From: Kineosporia mesophila
GTDB taxonomy: Bacteria; Actinomycetota; Actinomycetes; Actinomycetales; Kineosporiaceae
DNA length: 64,000 nucleotides
Assembly (NCBI RefSeq): GCF_021129235.1
Contig: NZ_JAJOMA010000014.1
Location: 124,001-188,000 of the forward strand
Reading direction: 5' to 3'
Both the position numbers and the translations under genes were made by a program. Under the pieces are notes generated by a model. That model had not been told where the DNA came from, did no database searches, and was given only the letters and a program-made list of their open reading frames with translations. Of the stretch, positions 22,238 through 29,110 are shown one piece after another (within the stretch, counting starts at the first letter, position 1; each line of letters starts with the position of its first letter).

Positions 22238-24928
22238 TTACCGTACGGGCGGCTCTCCCTTGCCGACGCTTTGGAGTAATACTTCATGGCCGGCCCGACG
22301 AGCTCGCATCAGCGCTTCGTCGATGCGTTGAAAGTCCCGCCCTCCGGCCTGGGCCACGGAACCGGTCCCACCGGCTCCACCTCCGATAATTGATGCTGCT
22401 CCGCTCAGAAGGTCATGGGCCTGGAAACCGCTAGAGACAAGATCATGGCTGATGCTGGCCACAAATTGAGCCTTTCCAGCTTCTGCGACTGCAAGGATGA
22501 CGATCGCAGGTCGCCCTGGGATCTGCTCCAGGGTCTCTTCCGCCAGAAGGCGAAGTTCCGAACCTGTTACACCTTCGATCTTTTCAACAACGATCGAACC
22601 ACCCTCGGCCTGACTCGCGGCATCCGCAAGCCGTGCCGCGCGCCGGCCTCTCTGCACCTGGCTGATGCGGTTGAGTTCATGCTGGGCTGTGGCCAGTTTG
22701 CTCAACACGAGCTCTAGCTGTCGTGGCGCCTGCCCGGTGGAGACGTTCAGCATGAGAGCCAACTCATGGAGAAGGTGTCGTTCGTGGTCGTAGTAGCGCA
22801 GAGCGTCGGCTCCGGTGAGAGCTTCGATGCGGCGCAGACTGGCTCCGACAGACGTTTCCCCGAGGATACGGACCGGGCCGGCCTGGGATCCGTGGCCAAC
22901 GTGAGTTCCGCCGCATAGTTCGCGGGAAAAGTCGCCGATGTCGACGATCCTCACGGTGTCGCCATACTTCTCGCCGAAGAGAGCTGTGGCGCCGGCAGCT
23001 TCGGCCTCGGATCGAGTGGCATGCCAGACCCGGACATCGGGGTCATCCATTAAATAGTCGTTGACGCGGTTCTCGATGTCCTCCAGATCAGGAACGGGAA
23101 TCGCTGAGAAGTGGGCGAAGTCGAACCGGAGACGGCCTGCTGCCACCAGCGATCCTTGTTGCTGGGCGTGGGACCCGAGGGCGGCGCGCAGGGTGGCATG
23201 CAGGACATGGGTGGCCGAGTGCGAACGAGCGACGGCAGCCCTGTGGGAACCATCCACCTGGGCCTCGGCGATTTCACCGGTGCGCGCCACTCCGGACAGA
23301 ACGGTGGCGGTATGGACGTGCAGTCCGTCGATACCTGTTCGTGTGCCAGTAATCTGCAGAACAGCGCCGGAATTGGTGGTGACGGTTCCGGTGTCACCCA
23401 CCTGTCCCCCGGCCTCGGCGTAGAAGGGGGATCGGTTCAGAACCACCCTCACCGGAGCGCCTTCACCGACCACCGGCATGATGACATCATTACTGATGAG
23501 AGCCAGAACACGAGTTTCGGTAGTGAGGTTGTCATAGCCGACGAAGTCGGTGAGACCGTGCTGGGCGGCGATCCCGCGGTAGAGGTCGTGCCGGGCCAAC
23601 GCGTCGGCGGTCTTGTTCCTGCCGTGCTTCTTGGCACGTCTCCTCTGCTCATCCAGCAGGATGGCGAATCGCTCGTGATCGACCTTCAGGCCGGCTTCCC
23701 GGGCCACTTCGATCGTCAGATCGATAGGGAAGCCGTAGGTGTCGTGCAGTTCGAACGCCGTATCCCCGGTGAGAGTGGACATTCGCTGCTGATGTGCAGT
23801 CGCGACCGAAGATTCCAGGAGTCTCGAGCCTTGCCGAAGGGTTCGATCGAAGGTCACTTCCTCAGCTGAGGCGACTTGAGTGATCAGCGAGGACTGAGCC
23901 GCTAGTTCGGGCCATGCGGGAGAGAGATTGTCGATGACGCTGTTGGTGATGACCGGGAGGACAGAACGCTGGATACCGAGCTGACGCGCGTGCCGGACGG
24001 CTCCGCGCAGGAGACGCCGCAGAACGTAGCCGCGTCCTTCATTGCTCGGCAGGACGCCGTCGGCGACGAGGAACGCGATGGATCGGGCATGTTCAGTGAC
24101 GACTTGGAAGGACACTGATTCCCGGCTGCCGTCGCGCCCTGGGAAGGTGCGCCGGGCAAGCTCCTGGACCGTGCTCAGGGTGGGCGCGAGGAGATCCGTT
24201 TCACAGATGGTGTCGACGCCTTGCAGGATCGCCGCTATCCGATCGAGGCCCAGGCCGGTGTCGATACTCTTGGCCGGTAGATCGCCGAGAATGGAAAAGT
24301 CGCCTTTGCCATCACCGGCACCCCGAATGTTCTGCATGAAGACCAGGTTCCAGATCTCCAGATAGCGTTCACCGTTCACCGCAGGGCCACCGGCAGGGCC
24401 GAAGGCCGGACCGCGGTCGTAACAGACTTCAGAGCAGGGTCCGCAAGGACCAGGGACGCCCGTGGACCAGTAGTTGTCTTCCATACCGAGCCGCTGGATG
24501 CGTTCGGCGGGCATTCCGACGGCACGCCAGAGTCGCTCGGTCTCGTCGTCGTCCAAATAGACCGTGATCCACAGCCGGCCGGGATCGAGGTGGAAGACCT
24601 GTGTGAGTACTTCCCAGGCCCAGGCGATGGTTTCGGCCTTGAAGTAATCGCCGAAGGAGAAGTTGCCCAGCATCTCGAAGAACGTGCCGTGCCGCGTGGT
24701 GCGTCCGACGTTCTCGATGTCCGAGGTGCGTGCGCATTTCTGCACTGACATGGCTCGTTGAAAGTCCGGGACCGTTTCCCCGAGGTAGTAGGGCTTGAAC
24801 TGGTTCATCCCGGCGTTGGCCAGCAGCAACGTGGGGTCATTCGGAATCAGCGACCCGGAGGGGACCAGGTGGTGATCACGAGCGCCGTAGTAGTCGAAGA
24901 AGCTCGATCGGATCTGGCTGGAAAGCAT
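22238..24928 (-). CDS. alaS: Alanine--tRNA ligase, second-copy type
   Basis: Complete 896-aa alanyl-tRNA synthetase that charges tRNA-Ala. The class II core starts with IRSSFFDYYGARDHHLVPS and LIPNDPTLLLANAGMNQFKP, with GTFFEMLGNFSFGDYFK and GLGLDRIAA also present. The editing domain has HSATH at 570-574 and CGGTH at 672-676, so mischarged Ser/Gly can be removed, and the C-Ala/DHHA1 tail ends in a glycine-rich GGGAGGTG. ATG 24928 is chosen for its fit to the family N-terminus and GAGG 7 bases upstream. The neighbours are not those of the usual housekeeping alaS (ruvX/mltG/aroE side) and GC is far below the flanks, so this looks acquired, perhaps as a resistant or specialised copy. Confidence 0.93.
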   Translation of the reverse strand: MLSSQIRSSFFDYYGARDHHLVPSGSLIPNDPTLLLANAGMNQFKPYYLGETVPDFQRAMSVQKCARTSDIENVGRTTRHGTFFEMLGNFSFGDYFKAETIAWAWEVLTQVFHLDPGRLWITVYLDDDETERLWRAVGMPAERIQRLGMEDNYWSTGVPGPCGPCSEVCYDRGPAFGPAGGPAVNGERYLEIWNLVFMQNIRGAGDGKGDFSILGDLPAKSIDTGLGLDRIAAILQGVDTICETDLLAPTLSTVQELARRTFPGRDGSRESVSFQVVTEHARSIAFLVADGVLPSNEGRGYVLRRLLRGAVRHARQLGIQRSVLPVITNSVIDNLSPAWPELAAQSSLITQVASAEEVTFDRTLRQGSRLLESSVATAHQQRMSTLTGDTAFELHDTYGFPIDLTIEVAREAGLKVDHERFAILLDEQRRRAKKHGRNKTADALARHDLYRGIAAQHGLTDFVGYDNLTTETRVLALISNDVIMPVVGEGAPVRVVLNRSPFYAEAGGQVGDTGTVTTNSGAVLQITGTRTGIDGLHVHTATVLSGVARTGEIAEAQVDGSHRAAVARSHSATHVLHATLRAALGSHAQQQGSLVAAGRLRFDFAHFSAIPVPDLEDIENRVNDYLMDDPDVRVWHATRSEAEAAGATALFGEKYGDTVRIVDIGDFSRELCGGTHVGHGSQAGPVRILGETSVGASLRRIEALTGADALRYYDHERHLLHELALMLNVSTGQAPRQLELVLSKLATAQHELNRISQVQRGRRAARLADAASQAEGGSIVVEKIEGVTGSELRLLAEETLEQIPGRPAIVILAVAEAGKAQFVASISHDLVSSGFQAHDLLSGAASIIGGGAGGTGSVAQAGGRDFQRIDEALMRARRAGHEVLLQSVGKGEPPVR

Positions 24929-25354
24929 GACGAAACCTCGCATGGCTGGGCAGACGGACACCGGCGGAGCACCGACTCGTCTCAGGCAGCCATGAGACAG
25001 CGTGCTGAGGGGCGGTACCGCGGGTGTCGAGAACGGAAAGAGATGAGGTTGTTGACACACACGCCGAGCCGGCCGAGGGGCTCAAACGAGGCGGTTGACC
25101 TCGGAACCCGGCTCGGCGCAGATAGCTCGCGCGCTCATGGTCGCCAGACCCATCAAATTTCCCTGTTCGTCGCTGGACGTCGCCGTCAACGGTAGCGCAA
25201 TATCCATCCTGCTTCAGCGAATTGCTCACCAGCCTGAGATACCGGCCCGTAAGCCGCCTCCAGATCTTCGGCCATACACCGAGCGGTCTGAAGTTCGGAC
25301 AGGCGTTAGAACCGATGGTGGACGTGCGAGCATCCCAGTTCTCCTAGTCTCGCT
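24929..25354 (-). promoter_or_regulatory. Long structured 5' leader of alaS
   Basis: About 425 bases without a credible gene. In the alaS sense it forms a strong stem at 25117-25063 (arms GCCGAGCCGG... with inner CCGAGG/CCTCGG), then a GCGGTACCGC palindrome at 25013-25022 and a GTCTCA-N8-TGAGAC stem at 24998-24979, close to the start codon. This order suggests RNA-level control of the synthetase. The GGTACCGC core recalls the T-box consensus, but the rest of the motif does not fit on this strand. Confidence 0.4.
25063..25117 (-). promoter_or_regulatory. Large stem-loop in the alaS leader
   Basis: Outer arms GCCGAGCCGG / CCGGCTCGGC and inner arms CCGAGG / CCTCGG with a three-base bulge and a loop of about 20 bases. 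It starts roughly 135 bases before the alaS ATG. It could be an attenuator element or simply a terminator. Confidence 0.45.
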
Positions 25355-28544: not shown

Positions 28545-29110
28545 AGAACATGCTGGATGATGAAGCTGCCGGAACAGCTGCCCTGCTGTTCGAGGTGGGC
28601 ACTTTGAAGCTCACGCCGCGGACAGGTTGGCTCCATGCCCAGGTACGGCACCCAGAGTCGATCGCTGAGCATTCCCATCGTGTATCCCTGATCAGCGCGA
28701 TTCTGGCCGCTCTTGAGGGCGCCGATCCCGGACGTGCAGCGTTGATGGGAACGTTGCACGACACCCAGGAATCCCGGCTCGGTGACATCAGCCACGTGGG
28801 CAAGGCCTATGTGAAAACGGTGAAGAACGAGCAAGTCACTGCGGACCAGACCTCAACCGCTGCACCAGTGGTCGCCACGATGATCGGTGATGCTGTCGCA
28901 GAGTACGAGGCCCAGGAGACGCCTGAATCCAGGGTGGCGAAGGACGCAGACAAACTAGAGTGTCTCTTGCAAGCTCTGGAGTATCAGCGAGCGGGGAATC
29001 AGAACGTCCAGGCATGGGTGGACAGCAGTCGGGCTGCACTGAAAACCGCTGCCGCATTACAGATTGCTGACGCGGCAATGAATATGACAGGGCTTGAATG
29101 GCGGCAATAA
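28541..29110 (+). CDS. HD-domain hydrolase (YfbR/5'-deoxynucleotidase-like)
   Basis: 189-aa metal-dependent phosphohydrolase of the YfbR/YGK1 kind. Metal ligands are visible as SIAEHSHRV (His44 and His46), the HD pair LHDTQES (His73-Asp74) and KDADKLEC (Asp137). Relatives hydrolyse dNMPs or other nucleotides. The EHSHRV/HDTQESRLGDI/DADKLEC series matches the compact single-domain enzymes. Coupled to the XRE gene by a 4-base overlap. A nucleotidyltransferase in the divergent operon raises the possibility that the two enzymes act on the same nucleotide-linked metabolite. Confidence 0.82.
   Translation: MKNMLDDEAAGTAALLFEVGTLKLTPRTGWLHAQVRHPESIAEHSHRVSLISAILAALEGADPGRAALMGTLHDTQESRLGDISHVGKAYVKTVKNEQVTADQTSTAAPVVATMIGDAVAEYEAQETPESRVAKDADKLECLLQALEYQRAGNQNVQAWVDSSRAALKTAAALQIADAAMNMTGLEWRQ

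What the first reader, a model, noticed from the sequence alone, without database searches (positions are those of the whole stretch)
22238..29110. Low-GC island pairing a second AlaRS with an Asp/Asn hydroxylase, nucleotidyltransferase and XRE-HD unit
Seen: five intact genes in a block whose counted lines are 50-65% GC against 70-77% outside, bounded by strong hairpins. AlaRS has complete aminoacylation, editing (HSATH, CGGTH) and C-Ala regions, yet is not in the usual alaS neighbourhood. Hydroxylase and nucleotidyltransferase are ATGA-coupled; XRE and HD genes are ATGA-coupled and divergent from a shared 289-base promoter. Inference: a regulated, horizontally acquired module in which Ala-tRNA, or a resistant AlaRS, is tied to hydroxylation and nucleotidylation of a peptide, amino acid or tRNA. 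Possible roles: self-resistant AlaRS for a small-molecule product, tRNA-dependent amino-acid chemistry, or a defence/toxin system with spare synthetase.
Basis: partly seen in the sequence, partly recalled or inferred. Interest (0 to 1): 0.78.

Follow-up and report, generated by a model that had tools for sequence, protein, structure and literature searches.

The report
Inducible spare AlaRS beside hydroxylase-nucleotidyltransferase operon
This bacterium carries a second alanyl-tRNA synthetase next to two enzymes that look like small-molecule tailoring enzymes; the same cassette recurs across actinobacteria, where a previously uncatalogued control RNA sits in front of either the spare synthetase or an antibiotic-kinase-like gene, so it is probably a resistance switch beside the pathway for an unknown inhibitor of alanine tRNA charging.

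Summary
Five intact genes lie at 22238-29110 in a ~61% GC block (flanks ~70%), and the genome has a separate housekeeping alaS beside ruvX (44% identical). Hydroxylase, nucleotidyltransferase (NTase) and AlaRS form a conserved actinobacterial cassette: of 45 hydroxylase loci, 33 have an AlaRS and 8 an APH-like kinase in its place. Usually LOG, PyrE-like and HAD genes are also present; the window has lost or never had them. Where counted, cassette AlaRS is always a second copy, and it was recruited from two separate AlaRS clades. The XRE-HD pair is not a conserved partner.

It lies before every clade AlaRS and every cassette kinase examined, is absent from Rfam, and one leader Ala codon is invariant.

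Best reading: ribosome-mediated attenuation senses poor Ala-tRNA charging and switches on a resistance gene, as for the Streptomyces coelicolor auxiliary TrpRS. The neighbouring operon probably makes an AlaRS inhibitor, as in ascamycin. Product, resistance and attenuation are all inferred, not tested.

The parts
22238..24928 (-). alaS2: full-length auxiliary alanyl-tRNA synthetase (896 aa), with aminoacylation, editing (HSATH/CGGTH) and DHHA1/C-Ala parts
   Evidence: second alaS at C12; clade with cassette AlaRS 100/100
25082..25153 (-). leader ORF, MGLATMSARAICAEPGSEVNRLV*, preceded by AGGGA; first Ala of the RAICA core conserved in all leaders
25055..25141 (-). conserved leader RNA (model R1): 12-bp stem 25119-25108 / 25072-25061, putative attenuator hairpin
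   Evidence: (only hit in own genome, E 1.9e-9); no Rfam match
25189..25194 (-). TACCGT box, candidate -10 of a separate alaS2 promoter; comparable TANNNT boxes upstream of most other leaders
   Evidence: pattern only
25353..25394 (-). strong hairpin after the NTase gene, candidate terminator separating the operon from alaS2
25422..26330 (-). minimal nucleotidyltransferase (GS...DID motif), fold closest to LinB and ANT(4')/ANT(6) small-molecule nucleotidyltransferases
26327..27193 (-). 2-oxoglutarate oxygenase (Asp_Arg_Hydrox; H117/D119/H166, R176 conserved), closest in fold to proline cis-4- and 3-hydroxylases
27194..27482 (.). 289-base divergent intergenic region between hydroxylase and XRE gene
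27483..28544 (+). XRE-family HTH protein; pairs with HD gene on actinobacterial plasmids, not a conserved cassette member
28541..29110 (+). HD_3/YfbR-like HD-domain protein (possible 5'-nucleotidase), ATGA-coupled to XRE
22178..22221 (.). perfect 44-nt palindrome between convergent GntR gene and alaS2, candidate bidirectional terminator
29247..29283 (+). 13-nt-arm hairpin downstream of HD gene, candidate terminator

Best explanation
alaS2 is an inducible, inhibitor-tolerant spare AlaRS attached to a small-molecule operon whose product, or a similar compound, inhibits AlaRS. Shown by sequence: a conserved mobile cassette (hydroxylase, NTase, usually LOG, PyrE-like phosphoribosyltransferase and HAD phosphatase) is followed, behind its own leader, by a second AlaRS or an APH-like kinase. 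Inferred: ribosomes translate the leader ORF; when Ala-tRNA runs short they stall on the invariant Ala codon, 4 nt before the 5' arm of the hairpin, cover that arm, stop the hairpin forming and let transcription reach alaS2 (or the kinase). With ample Ala-tRNA the hairpin forms and expression stays low. Also inferred: the hydroxylase oxidises a free amino acid and the NTase adds a nucleotide, giving an aminoacyl-adenylate-like compound that LOG-PRT-HAD may tailor in fuller cassettes; the spare AlaRS tolerates it and the kinase inactivates it.
For: Co-occurrence: 45 hydroxylase loci in Streptomyces, Nocardia, Micromonosporaceae, Streptosporangium and others, 33 with AlaRS, 8 with APH in its place. 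Second copy: all six Nocardia/Kibdelosporangium genomes and one Micromonospora with cassette AlaRS have exactly two AlaRS; one genome with hydroxylase-NTase only and one with APH have one. Repeated recruitment: cassette AlaRS comes from two clades (tree; AU p 0.004 against one clade). Leader: in front of every clade AlaRS and every cassette APH examined, including cassettes that have lost genes and stand-alone AlaRS; all strong hits in about 770 genome searches precede AlaRS or APH. Stem found independently by RNAalifold, 96% of cells paired against 30-42% when slid, three pairs changed on both sides. Leader Ala codon 43/43 with GCT/GCG/GCA used; neighbouring codons change residue. In several loci the ORF starts 6-7 nt after a TANNNT box, as in leaderless mRNAs. 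AlaRS keeps the Asn and Asp lost in the transferase AcmF (PMC12945691). Enzyme folds: NTase nearest LinB/ANT, hydroxylase nearest free-proline hydroxylases and a nucleoside-antibiotic hydroxylase. Precedents: AcmD of ascamycin (PMC12945691); auxiliary TrpRS under ribosome-mediated attenuation (Vecchione and Sello 2010, cited in PMC4787780).
Against: No product is known and no exporter gene is part of the cassette. The window lacks LOG-PRT-HAD (best LOG in its genome only 34%), so its pathway may be incomplete. Leaders are not alanine-rich beyond the conserved position(s); the adjacent Arg CGA is nearly as conserved (41/43), so an arrest peptide or Arg sensing is possible. Most hairpins lack a clear U-run and some fold no better than shuffles (L016 z -0.6). 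The Nocardia-type cassette AlaRS has no leader. Active-site columns show no change shared by both cassette AlaRS clades that explains resistance. The leaders were first collected with a pattern that requires an Ala codon, though the covariance model found no true hit without one.
Confidence: 0.55

Rival explanations
1. The whole cassette is a resistance or detoxification island against AlaRS inhibitors made by neighbours: hydroxylase, NTase, LOG, HAD and kinase modify or break the foreign compound, AlaRS2 is the bypass.
For: NTase and APH belong to antibiotic-modifying enzyme folds; the cassette sits on plasmids and as isolated islands with no exporter; stand-alone leader-AlaRS exists in genomes without the hydroxylase.
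Against: Hydroxylase plus phosphoribosyltransferase plus phosphatase look more biosynthetic than degradative; hydroxylase-NTase have their own regulators (NsdA-like, TPR or XRE) and lie outside the Ala-responsive leader, which is odd if they are the response.
Confidence: 0.2
2. Ala-tRNA from AlaRS2 is a substrate of the pathway (tRNA-dependent alanylation of a small molecule).
For: Ascamycin and similar pathways pair a cluster AlaRS with an aminoacyl-tRNA-dependent transferase (PMC12945691).
Against: No transferase of a known tRNA-dependent type in the cassette; a kinase-type cassette genome lacks a second AlaRS; AlaRS2 occurs without the hydroxylase; a dedicated promoter-like box and leader separate it from the operon.
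Confidence: 0.1
3. The leader peptide is a small-molecule-dependent arrest peptide (as in erm leaders) or senses Arg-tRNA, not Ala-tRNA; the downstream genes are still resistance genes.
For: Arg CGA before the Ala is conserved in 41 of 43 and R-R-A or R-x-R motifs recur.
Against: Arg changes to Gln in two leaders while Ala never changes and its wobble base does; one downstream gene is AlaRS itself.
Confidence: 0.25
4. Defence or toxin-antitoxin system with a spare synthetase.
For: Mobile, island-like, NTase weakly like PADLOC PDC-S09 and MntA models.
Against: No PADLOC model matches AlaRS, hydroxylase, XRE, HD, LOG, PRT, HAD or APH; NTase matches are weak and cover only the catalytic motif; no effector or phage-linked context seen.
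Confidence: 0.05
5. XRE-HD and hydroxylase-NTase-AlaRS are two unrelated passengers in one low-GC stretch (compatible with the best explanation for AlaRS).
For: XRE-HD absent from all 45 loci and present alone on plasmids.
Against: Divergent regulators at this position are recurrent in other cassettes (NsdA-like or TPR), so the XRE protein may have taken that role here; one plasmid (L013) holds both 6 kb apart.
Confidence: 0.5

Closest known systems
AcmD, the second AlaRS of the ascamycin cluster (Streptomyces sp. 80H647; PMC12945691)
   Same: Full AlaRS, extra copy beside a pathway; there shown to be more resistant to the product than the canonical AlaRS.
   Different: acm pairs it with AcmF (AlaRS-like transferase) and AcmE; no AcmF-like gene here; hydroxylase, NTase, LOG, PRT, HAD and the leader are not mentioned for acm in the passages read.
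Auxiliary, indolmycin-resistant TrpRS1 of Streptomyces coelicolor with ribosome-mediated attenuation (Vecchione and Sello 2010)
   Same: Second aminoacyl-tRNA synthetase behind a short leader ORF and attenuator-like hairpin.
   Different: Ala instead of Trp; here the same leader also precedes a kinase gene; attenuation not tested. Known to me by title and citation and from memory, not read.
T-box leaders of synthetase genes
   Same: Leader RNA upstream of a synthetase gene.
   Different: No Rfam T-box match; element has an ORF and a single stem.
Proline 3-/cis-4-hydroxylases (1e5r, 4p7w)
   Same: Whole-length fold match of the hydroxylase (TM ~0.7) and the same oxygenase family.
   Different: 13-19% identity; substrate unknown.
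LinB and ANT(4')/ANT(6) nucleotidyltransferases
   Same: Best fold matches of the NTase (E 3.5e-5; probability 1.0).
   Different: Global TM only ~0.3, identity 12-18%; substrate unknown.

Membership tests
Canonical alanyl-tRNA synthetase (TIGR00344) | Full-length match above the curated cut-off with catalytic, editing and C-terminal domains | tested here: met
   806 bits against cut-off 457, residues 6-863; Pfam domains; catalytic Asn and Asp retained
Auxiliary (duplicate) aminoacyl-tRNA synthetase | A separate housekeeping copy in the same genome | tested here: met
   Second alaS on C12, 44% identical, followed by ruvX
Antibiotic-resistant auxiliary synthetase (TrpRS1, AcmD, SerRS2 type) | Lower sensitivity to an inhibitor than the housekeeping enzyme | not testable with these tools
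   Needs enzyme assay; association with kinase substitute is indirect support
Ribosome-mediated transcriptional attenuator | Translated leader ORF containing codons for the regulatory amino acid | tested here: inconclusive
   Conserved ORF with start signals and invariant Ala codon; translation not shown
Ribosome-mediated transcriptional attenuator | Terminator hairpin overlapping or following the leader ORF | tested here: inconclusive
   Conserved 12-bp stem with covariation; U-run usually missing; termination not shown
T-box | Match to the T-box covariance model | tested here: not met
   No match at E up to 2 in window 20000-32000 or 0.5 in three loci
Aminoacyl-tRNA-dependent biosynthetic cluster | Transferase using aminoacyl-tRNA (AcmF-, Fem-, CDPS- or PEARL-like) in the cluster | tested here: inconclusive
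   None among conserved cassette genes by Pfam/NCBIfam; neighbours of every locus were not scanned
Known anti-phage defence system | Match of component proteins to PADLOC models | tested here: not met
   Only weak NTase matches
2-oxoglutarate/Fe(II) oxygenase, Asp_Arg_Hydrox | HxD...H iron triad and 2OG-binding Arg | tested here: met
   H117, D119, H166, R176 invariant; Pfam E 4.6e-16

The most novel reading that the evidence does not exclude
A new class of alanine-responsive attenuator controls interchangeable resistance genes (spare AlaRS or kinase) next to an undescribed pathway whose two-enzyme core, an amino-acid hydroxylase plus a small-molecule nucleotidyltransferase, makes an aminoacyl-adenylate-mimicking AlaRS inhibitor.
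Probability: 0.25. Interest if true: 0.85.

Novelty: new variant of a known kind. Interest (0 to 1): 0.7.

Why it matters
Few natural AlaRS inhibitors with a resistant AlaRS are known; of the papers found here only ascamycin qualifies, and a 2022 review lists no auxiliary function for duplicated AlaRS (PMC9437257). A conserved cassette in which two different AlaRS clades and a kinase occupy the resistance position points to a widespread uncharacterised AlaRS-targeting compound. The leader gives a ready bioassay (a reporter for poor Ala-tRNA charging) and a sequence tag for mining genomes.

Tried and rejected
T-box-like GGTACCGC string near 25015: on the wrong strand and no Rfam hit. Rfam mir-2056 and DUF3800-VII matches inside genes: below gathering scores, taken as chance. 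In-frame MAA* mini-ORF and hairpin at 24979-24998: no counterpart noticed in the other leaders read, dropped. Extension of AlaRS to GTG at 25060: it would run into the leader hairpin region and the ATG at 24928 has a Shine-Dalgarno, rejected. Weak leader hits in G206, G381, G087 and G429 do not precede AlaRS or APH and look like chance. Search for active-site changes shared by both cassette AlaRS clades gave none convincing. First genome-contig scan with one protein found nothing. Synteny: the nearest genus member keeps SBP, flavin monooxygenase and GntR genes, then differs; the other boundary could not be fixed.
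Full report
Observation. Five intact ORFs lie at the stated coordinates in a ~61% GC stretch inside ~70% GC DNA. AlaRS is complete. The genome holds one other AlaRS, 44% identical, followed by ruvX, so the window copy is auxiliary. The bounding hairpins are real and are best read as terminators.

The cassette. Homologues of the hydroxylase on Streptomyces plasmids showed the pattern at once: hydroxylase, NTase, LOG-family protein, PyrE-like phosphoribosyltransferase, HAD phosphatase, then AlaRS or an APH-family phosphotransferase. 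A scan of one genome per species gave 45 named loci: 27 with AlaRS of the window's clade, 6 with another AlaRS (Nocardia, Kibdelosporangium), 8 with APH, 4 with neither. The window is a reduced form without LOG-PRT-HAD; reduced forms with APH exist in L050, L075, L083 and L088. A LOG of the cassette type is not elsewhere in the genome (best 34%). The hydroxylase is rare: 11 of 394 Streptomyces and absent, apart from distant relatives, from the other members of the window's genus.

AlaRS history. Window, cassette and stand-alone AlaRS form one clade (100/100) apart from housekeeping AlaRS; the window's own place inside it is not resolved. Nocardia-type cassette AlaRS falls elsewhere, and holding both together is rejected (p-AU 0.004). 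In a class-wide sample five genomes have the window's clade (60-64% identity to it; next 49%); two of these (G219, G133) lack the hydroxylase at E 1e-10 and carry AlaRS with the leader alone; plasmid pSGZL shows the same locally. Seven genomes with a cassette AlaRS have two AlaRS; one with APH and one with hydroxylase-NTase alone have one. So AlaRS is not needed by the operon enzymes, and the operon is not needed by AlaRS: the relation looks like target and tolerance, not shared chemistry.

The leader. The gap before AlaRS or APH holds a conserved element. In the window: TACCGT box 25194-25189, AGGGA, ORF 25153-25082, stem arms 25119-25108 and 25072-25061. RNAalifold finds the 12-bp stem from the alignment; counts show 96% paired cells, 30-42% when slid, and three pairs with changes on both sides. 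Related sequences inflate such counts, so I rest more on the slid control and on the divergent APH leaders. The model built from it hits the window genome once. Every strong hit in about 770 genomes precedes AlaRS or APH, in full, decayed or stand-alone settings. No Rfam family matches. The leader peptide keeps one Ala in 43 of 43 cases with three different codons, while other positions change residue (the collection pattern required GCN, but no true model hit lacks it). The distance from this codon to the stem is fixed at 4 nt, so a ribosome stalled there would cover much of the 5' arm (inference from usual ribosome footprints).

Enzymes. The hydroxylase has the HxD...H triad and Arg and folds like free-proline hydroxylases over its whole length. 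The NTase model (pLDDT 90) is nearest LinB and ANT enzymes, with low global TM. This suggests hydroxylation of an amino acid and nucleotidylation of a small molecule. An aminoacyl-adenylate mimic would explain the AlaRS link; this last step is a guess (about 25%).

XRE-HD. The pair is conserved as a pair on Streptomyces plasmids but is absent from the 45 loci. Other cassettes have divergent NsdA-like or TPR regulators at that position, so XRE may regulate the hydroxylase gene here; HD is probably a passenger of XRE.

Likelihoods. Conserved cassette: 0.98. Leader is a cis-regulatory attenuator: 0.85. Sensing of Ala-tRNA: 0.6. AlaRS2 is an inhibitor-tolerant backup: 0.65. Operon makes the inhibitor: 0.5. 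Adenylate mimic: 0.25.

Known or new. Auxiliary resistant synthetases (TrpRS1, SerRS2, AcmD) and attenuation of such a gene are known kinds. The cassette, the shared leader before AlaRS or kinase, and its association with hydroxylase-NTase were not found in the paper library, which lacks many subscription journals.

Noticed in passing
window 22178-22221: Perfect 44-nt palindrome with no loop (22-nt arms) between convergent genes; only copy in the window, other copies in the genome not checked.
   Followed up: partly
L181 (Streptomyces sp. SAT1 plasmid) 5360-9667: Another plasmid-borne AlaRS (44% to the window's) directly behind a TsaD-like and a GNAT gene, near gamma-butyrolactone regulators; no leader of the R1 type.
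   Followed up: partly
L043/L087 (Streptomyces sp. WAC08241): Cassette in which hydroxylase, PRT, HAD and AlaRS are each split by frameshifts, either sequencing errors (completeness 55%) or decay.
   Followed up: no
L018 (Gloeothece plasmid) 7992-8921: Cyanobacterial hydroxylase homologue (33% over full length) amid PEP-CTERM protein genes and near an NRPS, with no NTase or AlaRS.
   Followed up: no
L079, L086, L047: Hydroxylase (with or without NTase) without AlaRS or APH nearby; L086 has a divergent NTase (30%).
   Followed up: partly
L019, L020, L013: XRE-HD pair recurs as an independent unit on Streptomyces plasmids; function unknown.
   Followed up: partly
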